Shown here piece after piece: positions 7,923-16,956 of a stretch of DNA of 64,000 bases. This DNA comes from a virus. The notes under the pieces were generated by a model. The model ran no database searches and was not told the DNA's origin. It saw only the letters and a list, made by a program, of their open reading frames with translations. The stretch's first letter is position 1, and each line of letters starts with the position of its first letter. Where the stretch lies: the IMG/VR virus record IMGVR_UViG_3300010399_000004, positions 23,740-87,739 of that record; one strand, 5' to 3'. A program made the translations under genes and the position numbers.

Positions 7923-8596
7923 TGTCGGACCGCTCTACAGAACGCATAGTGCCTCAAAGAAGATCGCAGCCCGCGGTCTGCCCCCCGCCTTCTGTTCCGG
8001 GGGGAGCATCCAAACGAATTATTGACGGCACTCCGGGGGGAGAAAAGAAAAAATCCGAGGGAGCGTTGCGTATAATAGCCGCAGAGAAGCAGTTTCTTTT
8101 AAAGACTCTGCGCAGCAGTTTGGGAAATATTTCTCTGGCTTGTTTGAAAGCCAATATTTCGCGGACAAAGTTTACCCGATATGTCGATGAAGACCCGGCA
8201 TTTGCGGAGGGGGTAATTGAAGTTAAAGAAATGGCGGTGGATTTTGCAGAGGGGTGTTTATTTAAGCAAATGCGTAACGGCTCCACTGCCGCAGCTATCT
8301 TCTATCTCAAGACGCAAGGGCGGCACCGGGGCTACATAGAGAGGATTCGACATGAGCTTCCGGACGCTCCGGATGTATCCGCACCGATCACTGCGCAATC
8401 TATTGAAGAGGAAGTTCCGGATGAGAGCATGGATGAAATCTTTGATGTAATTGCCGAGGGAGTAGCGGCGCAAAAACGATTCATCGAAAAACGTAAAGCG
8501 GATGCCCTGAGGGCCGCGGCAGAGAAAGCAAAAGCCATGCCCCCTTCCGGACCAAGACTAATAACGGTCAAATCAAAAGCGGGGGTTGGGGGATGA
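7922..8596 (+). CDS. terS: Terminase small subunit
   Basis: 224 aa from ATG 7922; a TTG 15 nt upstream lies in the palindrome and is not needed. Disordered Pro-rich N-terminus, then a helix-turn-helix segment (SLACLKANISRTKFTRYV) typical of DNA-recognition domains in small terminases, a long central helix, and a Lys/Ala-rich C-terminus. Overlaps the large subunit gene by 4 nt. Assignment rests on the HTH, size and position. Confidence 0.75.
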   Translation: MSDRSTERIVPQRRSQPAVCPPPSVPGGASKRIIDGTPGGEKKKSEGALRIIAAEKQFLLKTLRSSLGNISLACLKANISRTKFTRYVDEDPAFAEGVIEVKEMAVDFAEGCLFKQMRNGSTAAAIFYLKTQGRHRGYIERIRHELPDAPDVSAPITAQSIEEEVPDESMDEIFDVIAEGVAAQKRFIEKRKADALRAAAEKAKAMPPSGPRLITVKSKAGVGG

Positions 8597-10992
8597 ATCC
8601 TGCACACAGGCAGAAATTTGCTCTGCTTATCAAGAAGGCCAGGAAAAGTTTCCTGGCTTATTTGATGTTATTCAACAATCCGAAGACTTCTCAAATCAAG
8701 ATGGGGAAGTTGCACAAGTTTCTGGCTGATCTTGTGCAGGGGGTAGTTGATGGGACATATGGAGCCTATCAAGCAGTTTCAATCCCCCCGCAGCACGGTA
8801 AGGCTCTGCACGATGATACTTTGATTCCTACCCCGGACGGGTTTAAAAAAATTGCGGACCTTGAAGTAGGGGATCGGGTATTCACCCAGGATGGTTCTGT
8901 GACTTCTGTTTTATGCGTGAAACACTGGAAGCGCAGACCGATCTACAAACTGACAATGGATGACGGAACGTTTGTGAAGGCGGATGGCGAGCATTTGTGG
9001 TCAGTCCGTATGTGTCGAAAGCGGAAAACAACACACACGCTCTGGACCACTGAACGGCTTAGCAAAAGAACGTCCAGCCGCTCCCCCGCCCTTCCTGAGT
9101 CTGGAGCTTTGGTGTTGCCGGAAAAGCCTTTTGTGGTGGCTCCTTATGTGCTTGGCTGCTGGCTTGGGGATGGAAACTCTAATGGAAACTTATTCACGGC
9201 AACAGAGGAGGATCAAGAGCATTATGCTCAAAGGTTCTCTGCGATGGGATTTCCGGTAAGCAGAACAGCCTACGCGATGCGGTTTCGTTTGCAGGCTTCT
9301 TGGTATATTCGATGGCTGAAAGACTCTGGATTGCATGAAAACAAGCACATCCCAGAGAGATATATGAGGGGAAGCGCGGAGCAGAGGAGGGAACTGCTGA
9401 AAGGCCTAATTGACACTGACGGCTATGTTTCGTCTGATGGACAGGTTGAATTCTGCAATGTAAACTATCGCCTCGCCTGCGATGTTCGGCGATTAGTCCA
9501 TTCGCTTGGAATCAAGGCGGCCATGTCCGAAGGGCGGGCAACTATAAATGGAGTTGACTGTGGTCCAAAATACCGAATCTTATTTTATGCAGACAGAGTA
9601 GCCTCTCTTCCACGAAAAGTAGCCAGACTCCGCAATCCGCAGAAACGATGTCGTTACATAGAAAAAGTTGAACGATGCGGAACGGGCAATACTACCTGCA
9701 TCCAAGTAAATCATCCATCGGGTATGTTCCTTTGCGGGGAGGCTTGCATACCCACCCACAACAGCCTTATGCTGGCGGTTGAGACTGTTTCCTGGCTAAT
9801 GGGGCATTCTCCGGGAATCAGCATCGCTATCGCTGGACATAGGCATGATTTGATGACTGAGTTTTCTCAGCAGGTAAAAGCGAGGATAAGTAATCCTTTA
9901 TATGCTTTAGTGTTTCCTAAAGCGGGGGAGATTATTCGGGGTAGGGATAAAGCGGATTCGTGGATGCTTGGCAATAGGTCAACCTTGAGGGCAAAATCGG
10001 TAGGAAGTAAATTGACAGGGAACCGGGTGGACTGGCTTATTATTGACGATGCCCATGCAGGCCGGGCGGAAGCAGAAAGCGAGACTCAGCGAAATAGAGT
10101 GCATCAGTGGTATTTCGGAGATTGCGTTACTCGTTTGTCTCCGGGGGCTAAAGTATTCATCATTGGGACGCGTTGGCATCCAAAGGATTTGATAGGACAT
10201 TTAACTAGCAAGGAGTATGTTGATACGCTCAAAGCAGAAGGGCAGGAAGAGCGTATATTTGAAGTAACTAATCTCCCTGCCTTTGCGGGAGAAAATGATC
10301 CTTTAGGAAGAGAATCGGGGGAAGCGCTATTTCCGGAAGTTCGTAATGCTGCCTGGCTCATGGGGGTTAAAGCGTCTATCCCTTCTTACGAATGGGATTC
10401 TCAATACATGGGCAACCCCCGTTCTATTGCGGAGGGGCAGGCAGATATTAGCCGGCTTAGAAGAATTCCTATGGATCGTGTCCCTATCCATATTCCCAGA
10501 TTGCGGGGGTGGGACCTTGCTCTTACAGAGAAGAAAACATCGGACTATTCAGTAGGATCGCTTTGCGCATGGGATGCAGACAAAGAAGAGTTTTATATAC
10601 TTAACATGTTCCGGGTAAAACTGGCTTGGCCAAAGCTTGAGCCCCGTCTTCTTGCTTTATCTCTAAGGGATAAGCTGGAATGGAATTGTAACAAGATGGC
10701 TATGGAAGCCGTAAGTGGATTTGAAATTGGATTACAAAACATTCGCAAGGCTTTATCCGGTCAGGTAAAAGTGGTAAAAAGAAATCCAGGGGTCGGAGGG
10801 AAACTGATGCGGGCGCAGGGGTGGTTGAATGTTTTGGAAAAGGGCAGAATGTTTATGGTTGAAGGTCCCTGGAATAAGGATTTCTTAGATGAGCTTCTTG
10901 ATTTCCCTAACGGAAAAAATGATGATATTGAGGATTCGGTTAGTGTCGCATGGGAAGAGTTGACTTCCCCGCAGAAACTTCTATATGGTTAA
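8593..10992 (+). CDS. terL: Terminase large subunit, interrupted by an intein
   Basis: 799 aa precursor; the spliced protein would be 479 aa, normal for a TerL. The Walker A sequence IPPQHGK-S is split between Lys70 and Ser391 by the intein. After it come the Walker B strand VDWLIIDDAHAG and SAT motif IIGTRWHPKD, then the RNase H-like nuclease with RGWDLALTE, MAMEAVSG and a final DDIEDSVSVA. This is the packaging motor that cuts and pumps DNA into proheads. Splicing is required for ATPase activity. Confidence 0.92.
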   Translation: MNPAHRQKFALLIKKARKSFLAYLMLFNNPKTSQIKMGKLHKFLADLVQGVVDGTYGAYQAVSIPPQHGKALHDDTLIPTPDGFKKIADLEVGDRVFTQDGSVTSVLCVKHWKRRPIYKLTMDDGTFVKADGEHLWSVRMCRKRKTTHTLWTTERLSKRTSSRSPALPESGALVLPEKPFVVAPYVLGCWLGDGNSNGNLFTATEEDQEHYAQRFSAMGFPVSRTAYAMRFRLQASWYIRWLKDSGLHENKHIPERYMRGSAEQRRELLKGLIDTDGYVSSDGQVEFCNVNYRLACDVRRLVHSLGIKAAMSEGRATINGVDCGPKYRILFYADRVASLPRKVARLRNPQKRCRYIEKVERCGTGNTTCIQVNHPSGMFLCGEACIPTHNSLMLAVETVSWLMGHSPGISIAIAGHRHDLMTEFSQQVKARISNPLYALVFPKAGEIIRGRDKADSWMLGNRSTLRAKSVGSKLTGNRVDWLIIDDAHAGRAEAESETQRNRVHQWYFGDCVTRLSPGAKVFIIGTRWHPKDLIGHLTSKEYVDTLKAEGQEERIFEVTNLPAFAGENDPLGRESGEALFPEVRNAAWLMGVKASIPSYEWDSQYMGNPRSIAEGQADISRLRRIPMDRVPIHIPRLRGWDLALTEKKTSDYSVGSLCAWDADKEEFYILNMFRVKLAWPKLEPRLLALSLRDKLEWNCNKMAMEAVSGFEIGLQNIRKALSGQVKVVKRNPGVGGKLMRAQGWLNVLEKGRMFMVEGPWNKDFLDELLDFPNGKNDDIEDSVSVAWEELTSPQKLLYG
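8803..9762 (+). mobile_element. TerL intein with LAGLIDADG endonuclease
   Basis: 320 residues. Starts with Ala (ALHDDTLIPTPDG), so an Ala1-type intein rather than the common Cys1; block B is DGEHLWSV. Ends CIPTHN before the +1 Ser. Two LAGLIDADG helices, YVLGCWLGDGNSNG and LLKGLIDTDGYV, mark the homing endonuclease. Inserted inside the P-loop, a common intein site because it is conserved. Confidence 0.9.
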
Positions 10993-11267: not shown

Positions 11268-11468
11268 ATGAACTTTGAAAACTTTTCAAACTGGATTTGG
11301 ATTCTGCTTGCTCTGATTCTCTGGGCATGGGCCGGGTATAGAGTTTTCCTTGCTTACGTAGCTTCCTCTATTGATCTTCGTAACGGATGGGAAAGAGCGC
11401 TGATGCTTCTATGTGGCCCGCGGGTATGGTTTATCACGTTAAGGCTTCGGAGGAAGTTCAGGAAATAA
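11268..11468 (+). CDS. Small membrane protein, 66 aa
   Basis: One strong transmembrane helix at residues 8-32 (WIWILLALILWAWAGYRVF), then a basic tail RLRRKFRK. The palindrome copy at 11274 encodes residues 3-8 (FENFSN). Could be a holin-like or inner-membrane accessory protein; context does not decide. Confidence 0.5.
   Translation: MNFENFSNWIWILLALILWAWAGYRVFLAYVASSIDLRNGWERALMLLCGPRVWFITLRLRRKFRK
11274..11290 (+). repeat. Palindrome copy 7 (perfect, central C)
   Basis: Begins 6 nt after the start of a small membrane-protein gene and is translated in frame. Confidence 0.95.
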
Positions 11469-11509
11469 GATTGACTGGCCCACGTCTTCATGTAAGACTC
11501 AACACTGCT

Positions 11510-12238
11510 ATGGCTACACTAAAGAAACACGAAGTAAAAAAAGAACAGACACTGCAATCGCTTAAAGCGAATGCAAAGAATCCCAGGAAGGAATGGAGCA
11601 GTGACGAAAAGAAAGCTGCATTCGTAAAATCACTTTCTGAATTTGGCGATCTTTCTGGAATCGTTTGGAATTCAAGAACAAAGCAGTTGGTGGGGGGACA
11701 TAAACGAATTGAAGAGTTCAAAAGTGATGATGCTGCTAAAATCGAATATACCAATAAACTGGAAACGGCGGATGTCTCGGGAACTACTGCATATGGTTAT
11801 GTGATGTTGACTTCCGGAGTGCGATTCGCTTATCGTGAAGTAAATTGGGACAAGAAGAAAGAGATGGCCGCTAATCTTGCGGCTAATCAATGGGCAGCAG
11901 AGTGGGATTGGGAAGGAGTATCGGATATGCTTAAAGAGCTTAATGATGGCGAGTTTGATCTGTCCTTGACGGGTTTCGATCATTCGGAATTCGAACCTTT
12001 ACTTGCAGCGGAGTGGGACCCCCCCGCAGCCGGGGATATGCCGGTTAATACTCCTTCCGAAGATCAGGAAGGAACTAATATTGCCAAGGGGATGAAGCAG
12101 TTGGTAATCAGCGATGCGGCGCATGATGCTTTGCAGCGATATAAGGAGGAAGGGAAATATCCTGATTACTCCGCGGCCATCCTTGCTTTGGTGCCTGTTG
12201 CTCCTAAAAAGGTTACTCCGCCCCGTCGGGGGGTTTGA
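11510..12238 (+). CDS. ParB/sulfiredoxin-like nuclease-fold protein, 242 aa
   Basis: Residues 20-55, NPRKEWSSDEKKAAFVKSL...LVGGHKRIE, follow the ParB-like pattern NPR...LxxSIxEFG...VGGHxR. Phage proteins with this domain often sit beside DNA-modification genes, as here just upstream of two DpdA-like genes. ATG 11510 was chosen over a longer frame from 11387, which lies inside the upstream gene. The acidic middle and Pro-rich tail are unassigned. Confidence 0.65.
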   Translation: MATLKKHEVKKEQTLQSLKANAKNPRKEWSSDEKKAAFVKSLSEFGDLSGIVWNSRTKQLVGGHKRIEEFKSDDAAKIEYTNKLETADVSGTTAYGYVMLTSGVRFAYREVNWDKKKEMAANLAANQWAAEWDWEGVSDMLKELNDGEFDLSLTGFDHSEFEPLLAAEWDPPAAGDMPVNTPSEDQEGTNIAKGMKQLVISDAAHDALQRYKEEGKYPDYSAAILALVPVAPKKVTPPRRGV

Positions 12239-12239
12239 T

Positions 12240-13280
12240 ATGGATGTTCGTTTGGCTTATCACCCCGAAGGGGGGAGGACTTTGAGTATGTTGAAATTTC
12301 CATCAGTGCGTTTGGCCGTTGCCCATAAAAGTCAAACAGGAGCTAACTCTGCGGAACATCATGTGAATGGTGCCGGGCTGGGTCACCCCACTATTCGTTT
12401 ATCTGCCGCCCCTAAAGGGGCGCAGGGAGATAACGTGTTGCAAGGAAAGCGGGGAGTAAAGCAATTAGGCAAAGAGAGCGCTCCCGCATTGTTGGTATCG
12501 TATTTCTATATCAAACCTTTTTTGGCTAATCAGGCGCAGTATTGTTATAGGGACTGGGTTCTAGACTCTGGCGCATTCTCTGCTTATATGAGCGGGGCTA
12601 CGATTGATTTGCAGGAATATATCAATCTCTGTATAAAGCTTCGCCGGGATGATCCTACTTTGACGGAAATATTTGCTCTGGATGTGATCGGCAACCATGA
12701 AGCCAGTTTGCATAACTGCGAAATAATGTGGGCGCAGGGAGTCGAAGCAATCCCTTGTTATCATTATGGTGAGCCGGCAGATGTCCTTATAACGATGGCT
12801 CAGAAATATCCAAAGATCGCTATCGGTGGTTGTGCGCGGATGCGGCTTGGAGCAAAAATGAAATTCGCAGAGCAGTGCTTTTCAAGGATATGGCCAAAGA
12901 AGATACACGGTTTTGGTTTCGGCAGTGAACAATCAATACTCGCCCTTCCCTTCTATAGCGTTGATGCTACTAATTGGGAAATGGGTCCTTGTGCATTTGG
13001 CAGGTGGAATAAGTTCGGGCAAATGAGTGTGCGGGGAAGCAGTCAGAATCTCAAACAGGAAGTTGAATATTATTTGGAAGTGGAAAGAAAAGCTCGTATC
13101 CGATGGAAAAGGGAGATGTTGCAATTGGAGGCACTTCCGAATAATAATCCCACTCTGCGACTCGCTATTGATGCTGCTTCGGGGGGAGGTAAAAGAGTAG
13201 GTAAAGCTTTGAAGAAATCCACACACACACACAGCACCAACTATAAGACTGGCCGCGGTTCCCTCCAGCGGACGCTCTGA
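12240..13280 (+). CDS. dpdA: DpdA-like TGT-family DNA transglycosylase, copy A
   Basis: 346 aa. Family signatures in order: DWVLDSGAFSAY, EIFALDVIGN, GVEAIPCYHYGEP, KIAIGGCARM, KKIHGFGFGS and FYSVDATNW. These match phage DpdA, related to bacterial tRNA-guanine transglycosylase, which swaps guanine in DNA for a 7-deazaguanine base. The first 90 residues are an extra, Gly/Ala-rich segment missing from copy B. Followed 16 nt later by a paralogue and the preQ0 pathway genes. A decayed palindrome relic overlaps its stop. Confidence 0.85.
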   Translation: MDVRLAYHPEGGRTLSMLKFPSVRLAVAHKSQTGANSAEHHVNGAGLGHPTIRLSAAPKGAQGDNVLQGKRGVKQLGKESAPALLVSYFYIKPFLANQAQYCYRDWVLDSGAFSAYMSGATIDLQEYINLCIKLRRDDPTLTEIFALDVIGNHEASLHNCEIMWAQGVEAIPCYHYGEPADVLITMAQKYPKIAIGGCARMRLGAKMKFAEQCFSRIWPKKIHGFGFGSEQSILALPFYSVDATNWEMGPCAFGRWNKFGQMSVRGSSQNLKQEVEYYLEVERKARIRWKREMLQLEALPNNNPTLRLAIDAASGGGKRVGKALKKSTHTHSTNYKTGRGSLQRTL

Positions 13281-13295
13281 AAGAACCTTTTCAAA

Positions 13296-14039
13296 ATGAA
13301 ACCTTCTGTGCTTATAGCTTTCCCTTTCTGGAAGGATGCGATGAGCACGCATTTGACAGGGAGGGATTGGGTAATGGATTCTGGTGCATATTCCGCATTT
13401 ACATCCGACAAGCATATAGCTTTAGGTGATTATATATCTTGTATAAAACGATTGCAGGACACTGCACATGCTCCGCGTCATGTATTTGCTTTAGATGTGA
13501 TTGGGGATGAATATGTAAGCTATAGCAATGCAATTGCTATGCGAACCGCTGGAATTGAGGTGATTCCTACTTGGCACGCAGGAAGTAGCCTGGAAGCATT
13601 GCGGAGAATTGCTGATGAGTTTTCACGAATTGCTATCGGGGGGCTAGTAGGTCGGCGTCCGAATCGTCGTTTAGTAATGGGTAAGAAAGCTCGAATTTAC
13701 TGGGTTTCCAAAGCATTTGAAACTGTATGGCCCAAATGGATTCATGGCTTTGGGTTGAGCTTCGTTGATCTTTTGCAATCATTTCCGTTTGCATCTGTGG
13801 ATAGTCTTGGATGGAGATTTACTCCCGAAGCTTTCGGTATATGGAAAACATTTGGAGGTAAATTGCCACTAAGAAAAGTTTCCTCCGTAGGGGTTGACTG
13901 TGAGATAAAGTGGTATCTTGAATTTCAAGAAAAGTTAAAACAGCAATGGAAACGTGAGCATGAGTCTGTTCAAGAATCTAATTTTTCAATCAAGTTTGCA
14001 TGTTGTAATAAGAAAGAAATAGTGCAACTTGATATATGA
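13296..14039 (+). CDS. dpdA: DpdA-like TGT-family DNA transglycosylase, copy B
   Basis: 247 aa paralogue of copy A with the same ordered motifs: DWVMDSGAYSAF, VFALDVIGDE, GIEVIPTWHAG, RIAIGGLVGRR, KWIHGFGLSF and FASVDSLGW. The conserved catalytic Asp regions DSGA and LDVIG are intact in both copies. Shorter because it lacks the N-terminal extension. Lower GC than copy A, so divergence is not recent. ATGA overlap with queC. The pair could act as a heterodimer, or use different bases or DNA motifs. Confidence 0.85.
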   Translation: MKPSVLIAFPFWKDAMSTHLTGRDWVMDSGAYSAFTSDKHIALGDYISCIKRLQDTAHAPRHVFALDVIGDEYVSYSNAIAMRTAGIEVIPTWHAGSSLEALRRIADEFSRIAIGGLVGRRPNRRLVMGKKARIYWVSKAFETVWPKWIHGFGLSFVDLLQSFPFASVDSLGWRFTPEAFGIWKTFGGKLPLRKVSSVGVDCEIKWYLEFQEKLKQQWKREHESVQESNFSIKFACCNKKEIVQLDI

Positions 14040-14812
14040 AAACTCATGTTGTTCAATCAATCAGTGGAGGTATGGATTCAACCTGCCTCCTTTTGCGTCA
14101 TTTGGCACAGAATCGCAGTATCCATCTCTTGTCTTTCGATTATGGGCAGAAGCATAAACTTGAATTGGAAAGATTGGATAAGAATTTGGAGTATCTGAAA
14201 GCACAGGATTTGGGCCATACTCGAATTTCGGTCCCATTCGGAGGCATTGCGTCCTCTGCATTGACTACTGCTGAACAGGATGTTCCGGAAGGTTTCTATG
14301 CTCAGGATAATATGAAGCAAACTGTGGTGCCGAATCGCAATGCTATTTTTTCAGCCATTGCCTATGCATCTGCTCTTTCTCTGGCTAATGAATTGCATCA
14401 GGAAGTATTGCTATCTCTGGGGGTGCATAGTGGAGATCATGCAATTTATCCTGATTGCAGGAGGGAATTCTTTGAAGCGCTGCACGCCGCATTTGTTTTG
14501 GGTAACTGGAACGGTCAAGCCGTCATACTTGATCTTCCTTATTTGGATTGGGATAAAGTAGATATTTTGCGGCAGGCAGTCAAGGATTGTGAAACTTTAG
14601 GGATTGAGTTCGATACAGTGCTTCGTAACACCAATACTAGTTACGCCCCAGACGTTTCGGGGAAAGCCAGTGGTCGCACGGGAAGTGATGTGGAGCGTAT
14701 CCTCGCTTTCCATGTTATAGGCCGGCGGGACCCAGTTGAATATATAGATGGATGGGAGAAAGCCCTTGAGTATGCTTTGCAATCGCAGAAAGATTTCAAT
14801 ATGAAAGGATAA
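14036..14812 (+). CDS. queC: QueC-like preQ0 synthase lacking its zinc cysteines
   Basis: 258 aa. The N-type ATP-pyrophosphatase loop SGGMDSTCLL is intact, as are FDYGQKHKLE and VPNRNAIF. QueC converts CDG through the amide ADG to preQ0. The C-terminal zinc site, normally SCYxGG...ACGxCGTCVER, reads TSYAPDVSGKASGRTGSDVER here: all four Cys ligands are replaced while the surrounding frame is kept. The enzyme may be metal-free, or altered so that it stops at ADG. Part of the dpdA-queC-queD-queE-folE cluster. Confidence 0.85.
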   Translation: MKTHVVQSISGGMDSTCLLLRHLAQNRSIHLLSFDYGQKHKLELERLDKNLEYLKAQDLGHTRISVPFGGIASSALTTAEQDVPEGFYAQDNMKQTVVPNRNAIFSAIAYASALSLANELHQEVLLSLGVHSGDHAIYPDCRREFFEALHAAFVLGNWNGQAVILDLPYLDWDKVDILRQAVKDCETLGIEFDTVLRNTNTSYAPDVSGKASGRTGSDVERILAFHVIGRRDPVEYIDGWEKALEYALQSQKDFNMKG

Positions 14813-14818
14813 AGGGAT

Positions 14819-15259
14819 ATGGCCGTGCCTACCTTAGTATTGATTGGATGCTCAAGCAGGAAAGCAAAGGAAGCTTGCGCAGTCAGAGATTTCTATTTGG
14901 GAACACTATTCAAAGCTTCGGTTGAGTGGACAGAATCTTGTAAATTGAAATGGGGGGTTATTTCCACGAAATATGGATTTGTCTTACCCGATCAAATTAT
15001 TGCTCCTTATAATGAAACCTTTGCCTCTTTCGCCAAAGGATCAGTAGGATATAGGAAAATAACTGATGGATGGCGACTTTTGGTGCGGAGACAGCTATTG
15101 CCTTATAAGGGAAGAAGAATGCTAAGTATCCTTGGAAAAGAATACGAAAATATTGGACTTCCTCTTTTTAATCCATTTAAGTATTTATGGTTGGGGGCTA
15201 GAGTTAAATGGTTATGGGGTCATTTAGGTATGCTTCCTTCTACTATTATAAAACCATGA
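14819..15259 (+). CDS. DUF6884-like protein, 146 aa
   Basis: The N-terminus VLIGCSSRKAKEACAVRDFYLGTLFKAS resembles DUF6884 proteins (LVGCxxxK...ARDLYxGxLFxxx), whose GVISTKYGFVLPD segment also fits. Embedded between queC and queD with an ATGA overlap to queD, so a part in the deazaguanine pathway is plausible but unproven. Confidence 0.6.
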   Translation: MAVPTLVLIGCSSRKAKEACAVRDFYLGTLFKASVEWTESCKLKWGVISTKYGFVLPDQIIAPYNETFASFAKGSVGYRKITDGWRLLVRRQLLPYKGRRMLSILGKEYENIGLPLFNPFKYLWLGARVKWLWGHLGMLPSTIIKP

Positions 15260-15681
15260 TTTCCTGCACCAAACGATATATTGATCTTCCATTCGCACAT
15301 CGTCAGCCCCACCATAATGGGCATTGCGCTATGATACATGGACATTCATGGGGCATTGAATTTGAATTCACTGCGCAACGGTTGGATGAATGTGGATTTG
15401 TAGTTGACTTCGGAAGTCTAAAATGGCTCAAGGAATGGATTGATGCTATGTTCGATCATACTTTGGTGCTGAATGCAGACGATCCATATTTGAAAAGTTT
15501 TCAAATTGCTCTGGAAGGCACTGCGAATATCAAAGTCGTTCCGGATTGTTCCAGCGAAGGATTGGCCATATTTATATTTCAAACGGTTGCAGATTTACTT
15601 TGGAAAACAGAACAAGGCCGAGTATCCCTGTTGCGCGTAACCGTATTTGAGGACTCAAAGAACTCTGCCACATATAAATGA
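15256..15681 (+). CDS. queD: QueD 6-carboxytetrahydropterin synthase
   Basis: 141 aa from ATG 15256 (ATGA overlap). Zinc histidines in FAHRQPHHNGHCAMIHGHSW, with the catalytic Cys in GHC. FVVDFGSLK and FDHTLVLN are further family motifs, and TVFEDSKN supplies the late Glu. Converts dihydroneopterin triphosphate from FolE to CPH4. Palindrome copy 9 is carried in frame as YLKSFQIA. Confidence 0.92.
   Translation: MISCTKRYIDLPFAHRQPHHNGHCAMIHGHSWGIEFEFTAQRLDECGFVVDFGSLKWLKEWIDAMFDHTLVLNADDPYLKSFQIALEGTANIKVVPDCSSEGLAIFIFQTVADLLWKTEQGRVSLLRVTVFEDSKNSATYK
15489..15505 (+). repeat. Palindrome copy 9 (perfect, central G)
   Basis: Inside queD and translated as LKSFQ. Confidence 0.95.
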
Positions 15682-16376
15682 AACGACCATTTCAATTACC
15701 CATCCACGAGCGTTTCGCTGCCTTCCAGGGGGAGGGTTGCCATATGGGGTTATCGGCATTCTTTATTCGCACGTATGGCTGTCCGGTAAAATGTAAATTT
15801 TGCGATTCTGCGGGCACTTGGCATAAGGATTTTGCCCCAAAGAAATCCTTACTTGTCGATGTTCCCGATCTTGTAAAGGAAGCAAAAGAAGCAAACCCCG
15901 TGTTTGTAGTATTGACCGGGGGGGAGCCCTGCATTCATCGGGAAGGGGTTCAGGCGCTCTCAGAATCGCTTTCCATTGCAAAGATAGCTCTACATGTTGA
16001 AACGTGTGGAGCATTCCCACTGCCCCCTTCCTGGTTCGATTGGATTACCGTTTCACCGAAGAGGGATGCTTTGCCTAAAGACGAAATGTTGCTTGCGGCC
16101 AATGAGTTGAAAATTATAGTGGATAATGTTGGTGCTATTGAGGAATGGATGAGTTTTATAAATGGAACACTTCCTAAAGTTCCGGTGTGGTTGCACCCAG
16201 AATGGTCCATGCGCAATGATCCATCTATTTTGAATTACATATCAGAATCTGTAAAATTGAGAGGGGGGAGATTCCGGGCCGGCTATCAGCTTCACAAACT
16301 TTATAACGTGGACAAGTTGGACAAGCGCTCTGCACCTTTAGTTCCGCTGGGTGGAAATCCCAAAAAAGGATTTTGA
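15678..16376 (+). CDS. queE: QueE 7-carboxy-7-deazaguanine synthase
   Basis: 232 aa radical SAM enzyme. CPVKCKFCDSAGTWH holds the CxxxCxxC cluster ligands; FAAFQGEGCHMG and VLTGGEPCIH are QueE hallmarks; WITVSPKRD and HPEWS follow as expected. Turns CPH4 into CDG. Overlaps queD by 4 nt; folE follows at 2 nt. Confidence 0.93.
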   Translation: MKRPFQLPIHERFAAFQGEGCHMGLSAFFIRTYGCPVKCKFCDSAGTWHKDFAPKKSLLVDVPDLVKEAKEANPVFVVLTGGEPCIHREGVQALSESLSIAKIALHVETCGAFPLPPSWFDWITVSPKRDALPKDEMLLAANELKIIVDNVGAIEEWMSFINGTLPKVPVWLHPEWSMRNDPSILNYISESVKLRGGRFRAGYQLHKLYNVDKLDKRSAPLVPLGGNPKKGF

Positions 16377-16377
16377 T

Positions 16378-16956
16378 ATGAATATGAAGGAGATAACCAT
16401 TGATGGTTTGAAAGCTCTGATTAGTTTGTCTGGGGATGATCCTACCCGCACAGGAATGGAAGAAACTCCAAACCGCTTTGTTAAAGCGTTCCTTGAGATG
16501 TGCAGCGGATATAAGGAGAATCCTTTAGATCATTTGCAGAAAGAATTTGATCTAAGTGATACTGGCGACGGCCATACGCCCTATGGGGGCATGATTATTT
16601 CTAAAGACATTCCCTTTGTCAGTCTTTGTGAGCATCATATGCTGCCGTTTCATGGAACAATTCATATGGGTTACATCCCCGGAGAATCAGGCAAAGTAGT
16701 GGGACTCTCAAAGCTGGCTCGTATGGCCGATGGTTATGCCAGGAGATTTCAAGTACAGGAAAGATTGACTCAGCAGATAGGTGACGGACTACAAAGTTTG
16801 AATCCACAGGGAGCTATCGTAGTGGTTCAAGCCCAGCACGCATGCCAATGTTTTCGTGGGGTTCGCAAATCGGGGAGCATGATCACTTCTGCGGTATATG
16901 GAGCTTTCAAAGAGCAACCTGCGAGGGAGGAATTCCTTACTTTGCTGCGTTTGTAG
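16378..16956 (+). CDS. folE: GTP cyclohydrolase I
   Basis: 192 aa from ATG 16378; a second ATG lies 6 nt later. Zinc ligands in SLCEHHMLPF and QHACQCFRGVR; GLSKLARMADGYARRFQVQE is the family signature. Makes dihydroneopterin triphosphate from GTP, the first step to preQ0. Last gene of the modification cluster, followed by a palindrome and the capsid operon promoter. Confidence 0.95.
   Translation: MNMKEITIDGLKALISLSGDDPTRTGMEETPNRFVKAFLEMCSGYKENPLDHLQKEFDLSDTGDGHTPYGGMIISKDIPFVSLCEHHMLPFHGTIHMGYIPGESGKVVGLSKLARMADGYARRFQVQERLTQQIGDGLQSLNPQGAIVVVQAQHACQCFRGVRKSGSMITSAVYGAFKEQPAREEFLTLLRL

What the first reader, a model, noticed from the sequence alone, without database searches (positions are those of the whole stretch)
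14036..14812. QueC without its zinc-binding cysteines
At the C-terminus the four Cys of SCYxGG...ACGxCGTCVER are S, S, T and D, while A-GR-G--VER is retained. QueC makes ADG and then preQ0. Known: some phages carry ADG rather than preQ0 in DNA. Inference: this enzyme may have lost the second step or use another stabilisation.
Basis: partly seen in the sequence, partly recalled or inferred. Interest (0 to 1): 0.8.

Follow-up and report, generated by a model that had tools for sequence, protein, structure and literature searches.

The report
Zinc-free QueC of a phage
A phage enzyme that makes the modified DNA base preQ0 has lost the zinc-holding cysteines thought to mark its family, and the same zinc-free form is the only copy in many marine archaea and some planctomycetes whose next pathway enzymes need the finished product, so zinc is probably dispensable rather than the enzyme being half-broken.

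Summary
The 258-aa QueC at 14036-14812 has Ser202, Ser212, Thr215 and Asp218 where QueC's four zinc cysteines lie, and keeps every catalytic motif. It is not a quirk of one phage. Of 320 related rows readable at these positions, 246 lack all four Cys, 73 keep all four and one keeps one. Catalytic residues are essentially invariant in both sets. On a tree built without the knuckle, at least 8 changes separate the states.

The suggestion that the enzyme stops at ADG is not supported. Cys-less QueC is the only full-length QueC in a Pirellulaceae genus (25 of 28 genomes), where QueF (28 of 28), which reduces the nitrile preQ0, and TGT (27 of 28) follow. It is also the only one in Poseidoniales archaea (50 of 58), which have arcTGT and an ArcS-type protein. 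Viral clusters place it beside QueF. The Campylobacter phage reported as fully dADG-modified keeps all four cysteines.

Best reading: a zinc-independent QueC that performs both steps (CDG to ADG to preQ0), with a metal-free, ordered knuckle. With FolE, QueD, QueE and DpdA-type proteins it predicts dPreQ0 DNA. This is comparative inference; activity and zinc content were not measured.

The parts
14036..14812 (+). queC, zinc-cysteine-less 7-cyano-7-deazaguanine synthase (258 aa)
14063..14080 (+). SGGMDS phosphate-binding loop (residues 10-15), intact
14639..14641 (+). position of zinc cysteine 1: Ser202, followed by the retained Tyr203 (E. coli Y189 equivalent)
14669..14671 (+). position of zinc cysteine 2: Ser212
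14678..14680 (+). position of zinc cysteine 3: Thr215
14687..14689 (+). position of zinc cysteine 4: Asp218, before the retained VER
11387..12238 (+). ParB-like protein at the head of the cluster
12114..13280 (+). DpdA-like transglycosylase, copy a (true start uncertain; homology from about residue 121)
13296..14039 (+). DpdA-like transglycosylase, copy b
14819..15259 (+). DUF6884 protein of unknown role inside the cluster
15208..15681 (+). queD, 6-carboxytetrahydropterin synthase
15678..16376 (+). queE, 7-carboxy-7-deazaguanine synthase (radical SAM CxxxCxxC kept)
16351..16956 (+). folE, GTP cyclohydrolase I with its zinc motifs CEHH and HAC kept

Best explanation
This is a working preQ0 synthase that has dispensed with its structural zinc. 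GTP is turned by FolE, QueD and QueE into CDG. This QueC activates CDG with ATP, adds ammonia to give ADG, then activates and dehydrates the amide to preQ0, using the intact active site. The C-terminal knuckle that zinc pins in canonical QueC is held instead by packing and hydrogen bonds of Ser/Thr/Asp side chains. The two DpdA-like enzymes would then exchange guanine for preQ0 in phage DNA. Shown here: the substitutions, their clade-wide occurrence, the conserved active site and the genomic contexts. Inferred: both chemical steps, absence of metal, and dPreQ0 in the DNA.
For: Active-site residues, including those shown essential in E. coli (Y35, R99, Y131, Y189; PMC13329287), are essentially invariant in 246 Cys-less rows. 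In a Pirellulaceae genus, 25 of 28 genomes have one Cys-less QueC, 28 of 28 have QueF and 27 of 28 TGT, while most other Pirellulales sampled keep Cys4 QueC. In Poseidoniales, 50 of 58 genomes have exactly one full-length QueC; all 30 read are Cys-less. TGT is in 54 of 58 and the ArcS-linked DUF5591 in 56 of 58, with FolE, QueE and QueD in the operon. Facilibium subflavum (L213, a named strain) has one Cys-less QueC with QueD and QueE next to it, plus TGT and QueF. Viral L155 (Cys-less) and its sister L146 (Cys4, support 97) share the same DpdA-QueF-QueC-FolE-QueD-QueE cluster. The QueF proteins next to viral Cys-less QueC keep the catalytic Cys and Asp and a QueF-like ESKSLKLYL/IYL motif. The model has mean pLDDT 93.9, knuckle 92-97, and matches QueC 3BL5 at Z 18.6 over 190 residues.
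Against: No activity or metal content was measured. Most cellular genomes are MAGs, so a second QueC or a preQ0 importer could be missed; queD and queE were not sought in the Pirellulaceae genomes outside the flanks. The window protein falls under the NCBIfam QueC cut-off (112.6 versus 150.3 bits). AlphaFold can draw a metal site without metal, so a confident knuckle is weak evidence. His/Asp at these positions in some Pirellulaceae could bind another metal.
Confidence: 0.8

Rival explanations
1. The enzyme stops after the first step and delivers ADG, which DpdA inserts, so the phage DNA holds dADG.
For: dADG is known in phage DNA (PMC8306585, PMC6884629). The zinc knuckle lies in the region of Tyr189, which is essential in E. 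coli (PMC13329287). No QueF was found in this record, so nothing in the phage itself shows that a nitrile is needed.
Against: Close Cys-less relatives are the only QueC in genomes with QueF plus TGT, or arcTGT plus an ArcS-type protein. Viral Cys-less QueC sits beside QueF. CPt10, reported as fully dADG, keeps four Cys.
Confidence: 0.08
2. The site still binds a metal, but a different or weaker one through Ser/Thr/Asp/His ligands.
For: One Asp is nearly always kept at position C4 or C2, and many Pirellulaceae have His at C2 (S-H-T-D).
Against: Position C2 varies freely (S, H, N, D, L, A) in the window's clade, and other Cys-less clades have A-V-D-S or D-V-N-T, which is unlike a metal site.
Confidence: 0.07
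3. The protein is a repurposed ligase that joins CDG to another amine, as Cap9 and QatC are thought to do with protein N-termini.
For: QueC-family proteins have been repurposed that way (PMC13329287, PMC13279940), and Cap9 (9NTO) is the top structural match (Z 19.1, tied with QueC).
Against: Cap9 and QatC keep their zinc cysteines according to those papers. Here the gene sits with queD, queE, folE and dpdA, with no CD-NTase or QatB seen among the genes checked, and in cells it is the only QueC beside the queuosine or archaeosine pathway.
Confidence: 0.04

Closest known systems
Canonical QueC (B. subtilis 3BL5, Pectobacterium/Erwinia 2PG3, E. coli QueC)
   Same: Fold (Z 18.6 and 17.7), SGGxDS, YxQxH, VPxRN, YPDC, Tyr189, Lys165, and linkage to queD, queE and folE.
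   Different: None of the four zinc cysteines; about 30 residues longer; 23-29% identity.
QueC of Mycobacterium phage Rosebush relatives (ItsyBitsy1; Rosebush DNA holds dPreQ0 per PMC6884629)
   Same: Same gene set (DpdA, QueC, QueD, QueE, FolE, then terminase), shared GHYxxDNM and VHxGDHA(I/V)YPDCRPEF-like motifs, 38% identity.
   Different: Rosebush-type QueC keeps all four cysteines.
QueC of Flavobacterium phage vB_FspM_immuto_2-6A
   Same: Closest isolate phage (44%), also Cys-less (S-D-S-S).
   Different: The other Cys-less motif type (SDYKSASSVER); no DpdA annotated within the stretch read.
Cap9 (type IV CBASS) and QatC (qatABCD)
   Same: QueC fold and ATP loop.
   Different: Both keep zinc cysteines (PMC13329287, PMC13279940), act with protein partners, and QatC lost the QueC substrate motifs kept here.
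Gat-QueC of phage 9g
   Same: QueC-family enzyme in a phage 7-deazaguanine cluster.
   Different: It carries a glutamine amidotransferase domain and gives dG+; the window protein has a QueC domain only.

Membership tests
Canonical QueC (PF06508, cluster 1 of PMC13329287) | Match to the family profile | tested here: met
   PF06508 2e-36, 125.9 bits against cut-off 22
Canonical QueC (PF06508, cluster 1 of PMC13329287) | SGGxDS phosphate loop | tested here: met
   SGGMDS, residues 10-15
Canonical QueC (PF06508, cluster 1 of PMC13329287) | YxQxHxxE, VPxRN, YPDC, Lys165, Tyr189 | tested here: met
   YGQKHKLE, VPNRN, YPDC, K174, Y203 all present; essentially invariant in 246 Cys-less rows
Canonical QueC (PF06508, cluster 1 of PMC13329287) | Zinc motif C(x)8CxxCxxC (so named in PMC13329287) | tested here: not met
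   S202, S212, T215, D218
Canonical QueC (PF06508, cluster 1 of PMC13329287) | NCBIfam equivalog TIGR00364 cut-off (150.3 bits) | tested here: not met
   112.6 bits; Pirellulaceae, Poseidoniales and Facilibium proteins also fall short at 121-132 bits
Canonical QueC (PF06508, cluster 1 of PMC13329287) | Linkage to queD, queE, folE | tested here: met
   all three just downstream
Canonical QueC (PF06508, cluster 1 of PMC13329287) | Converts CDG to preQ0 | not testable with these tools
   inferred from co-occurrence with QueF/TGT and arcTGT/ArcS
ADG synthase (QueC arrested at the amide) | Downstream enzymes that do not need a nitrile | tested here: not met
   for close relatives, not the window phage: QueF in 28 of 28 Pirellulaceae genomes; QueF beside viral Cys-less QueC
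Cap9 / QatC protein deazaguanylation | Partner gene (CD-NTase or QatB) and retained zinc motif | tested here: not met
   zinc motif absent; neighbouring genes are dpdA, DUF6884, queD, queE, folE
Gat-QueC | Fused glutamine amidotransferase domain | tested here: not met
   one domain, QueC residues 6-226 of 258

The most novel reading that the evidence does not exclude
The Cys-less QueC proteins form several independent lineages that stop at the amide or use another nucleophile, and another enzyme, not yet recognised in phages, planctomycetes and Poseidoniales, finishes the nitrile.
Probability: 0.06. Interest if true: 0.85.

Novelty: new variant of a known kind. Interest (0 to 1): 0.5.

Why it matters
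The zinc motif is one of two motifs by which QueC has been characterised, and a 2026 family analysis does not mention its absence from otherwise canonical QueC (parts read). Here it is absent, in an all-or-nothing way, from several viral lineages and from the only QueC of many marine archaea and some planctomycetes, so it should not be used to call function. If confirmed, it shows that the rare carboxylate-to-nitrile conversion does not depend on the zinc knuckle, gives metal-free versions for biocatalysis, and corrects predictions of phage DNA chemistry that read cysteine loss as ADG. NCBI's equivalog model currently misses these proteins.

Tried and rejected
ADG-only reading: rejected on the QueF/TGT and arcTGT/ArcS co-occurrence and on CPt10 keeping its cysteines. 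Decaying gene: rejected because the active site is essentially invariant and the Cys-less form is widespread. General zinc saving in the cluster: not supported, since FolE and QueD in the window keep their metal motifs (read by eye). Zinc supplied by the fused or adjacent MsrB domain in Poseidoniales: rejected as a general answer, since none of the fused ORFs is from Pirellulaceae or phage loci. A paper on further phage 7-deazaguanines (NAR 2023) was looked up by DOI but is not held. No paper describing Cys-less QueC was found. The direction of change (loss or regain) within the window's clade could not be resolved: four Cys4 proteins (L013, L207, L214, L223) lie inside it.

Full report
Observation. 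The ORF at 14036-14812 (+) gives a 258-aa QueC (PF06508 2e-36; PHROG 1550; nearest solved structures QueC 2PG3 and 3BL5). Its C-terminus NTNTSYAPDVSGKASGRTGSDVERILAF aligns with Cys-bearing QueC so that the four zinc cysteines are Ser202, Ser212, Thr215 and Asp218. Every other canonical motif is present.

Surroundings. The gene lies in a cluster of one direction: a ParB-like gene, two DpdA-like genes, queC, a DUF6884 gene, queD, queE and folE, followed by the portal gene. This is the minimal set that gave dPreQ0 in phages Rosebush and CAjan (PMC6884629), plus a second DpdA-like gene and DUF6884. No QueF was found in the 87.7-kb record.

It is a clade-wide trait. Of the 80 best viral relatives, 79 lack all four cysteines. 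There are two main types: S-x-S/T-D as in the window, and S-D-S-S (SDYKSASSVER), the latter also in the isolate Flavobacterium phage immuto. L013 keeps four cysteines with the same spacing. Other Cys-less forms occur in Rhizobium phages (L091, L153 and environmental kin), in L147-L149, L151 and L152, and in L139-L144. Counted by alignment column, 320 rows are readable at these positions: 246 have no Cys (one of them with masked residues), 73 have four and one (L197) has one. The sample was chosen by similarity and holds some near-copies, so these are not natural frequencies, but the gap between all and none is what one expects if a metal site is kept or lost whole. In both sets the phosphate-loop Asp and Ser, Tyr35, Arg99, Asn, Asp133, Lys165, Tyr189 and the final Arg are invariant, and the remaining motif positions nearly so (E. 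coli numbering). Tyr35, Arg99, Tyr131 and Tyr189 are residues whose alanine mutants were inactive in E. coli (PMC13329287).

Tree. With the knuckle columns removed, 115 rows need at least 8 changes between Cys4 and the rest; starred branches alone force 5. It is a quick tree with some long branches, so the exact number is unsure. The window groups with planctomycete proteins (nearest L158, 56-58% identity, weak support).

Cellular relatives decide the question. The best hits in bacterial and archaeal genomes are Poseidoniales archaea and Pirellulaceae, at about 47-59% identity, nearly all Cys-less. Flanking genes read for L162, L194 and L213 are ordinary chromosomal ones. Twelve genomes were searched whole: each has one full-length QueC, and the other PF06508 hits are short PP-loop stretches. 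In the Pirellulaceae genus, 25 of 28 genomes carry the Cys-less QueC, 28 of 28 QueF, and 27 of 28 TGT. Most other Pirellulales sampled have a more distant QueC, Cys4 in all those read, so the Cys-less form appears to have taken its place. QueF reduces the nitrile of preQ0 (established knowledge), so a QueC that stopped at ADG would leave this pathway without its substrate. In Poseidoniales, 50 of 58 genomes have one full-length QueC, all 30 read being Cys-less; 54 of 58 have a TGT-family protein; 56 of 58 have DUF5591, which among control genomes rang only in three euryarchaea and which I take from memory to be part of ArcS. folE, queE and queD lie in the same operon. ArcTGT inserts preQ0 and ArcS acts on it (PMC6884629). 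Facilibium subflavum, a named bacterial strain, has one QueC of the S-D-S-S type next to queD and queE, with TGT and QueF.

Viral contexts agree. QueF lies within the queC cluster in L002, L005, L006, L007 and L011 (window-like type) and in L155 (Rhizobium-phage type), with the catalytic Cys, Asp and a QueF-like ESKSLKLYL/IYL motif or close variant. L155 and L146 are sisters (97) in the same gene order, one Cys-less and one Cys4: a natural comparison that suggests the same job with and without the cysteines. Conversely, Campylobacter phage CPt10, reported to have dADG in place of all dG (PMC8306585, citing earlier work), has a Cys4 QueC.

Structure. The window QueC is predicted with mean pLDDT 93.9, 92-97 across the knuckle, with the same secondary structure as the Cys4 relative L013. 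It matches QueC 3BL5 (Z 18.6, rmsd 3.0, 190 residues) and Cap9 9NTO (Z 19.1, rmsd 2.1, 178 residues), which are tied. AlphaFold was run without metals and its alignment included Cys4 rows, so this shows a compatible fold, not an empty site.

Conclusion. The most likely explanation is a zinc-independent QueC that completes both ATP-dependent steps. Membership: it fails the zinc motif and the NCBI equivalog cut-off and meets all other tested features, so I call it a new variant that works like QueC. Shown: sequence, distribution, context, predicted fold. Inferred: both reactions, lack of metal, dPreQ0 in the phage.

Noticed in passing
window 12114-13280 and 13296-14039: Two tandem DpdA-like genes, both with DSGA(F/Y)SA, FALDVIG and SVD motifs; perhaps a heterodimer or two specificities.
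   Followed up: partly
window 14819-15259; L136; L060: A DUF6884 gene sits inside the 7-deazaguanine cluster, and similar genes lie near queC in two other viral loci; a possible unrecognised step.
   Followed up: no
window 8593-10992: The terminase large subunit carries an intein-like insert with Hint and LAGLIDADG homing endonuclease matches.
   Followed up: no
L168, L175, L192, L194, L200 and 33 other loci: In Poseidoniales the Cys-less QueC is often fused at its C-terminus to MsrB (38 ORFs read), and in 16 more loci an MsrB gene lies close by; the link of methionine sulfoxide reductase to QueC is unexplained.
   Followed up: partly
L091, L153-L157, L150; L147-L149, L151, L152; L139-L144: Further viral QueC groups without the zinc cysteines (HT[SA]YDG..., TDYNG...NDNHATELR, IADSSNPTSQER), apparently of separate origin.
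   Followed up: partly
L165, L190: Records titled Rhodobiaceae and Phycisphaerae carry the Poseidoniales-type folE-queE-queC-queD operon; probably binning errors.
   Followed up: no
L083:5989-6648: QueC of Campylobacter phage CPt10, whose DNA is reported as fully dADG, keeps all four zinc cysteines, so how that phage stops at the amide stays open.
   Followed up: no
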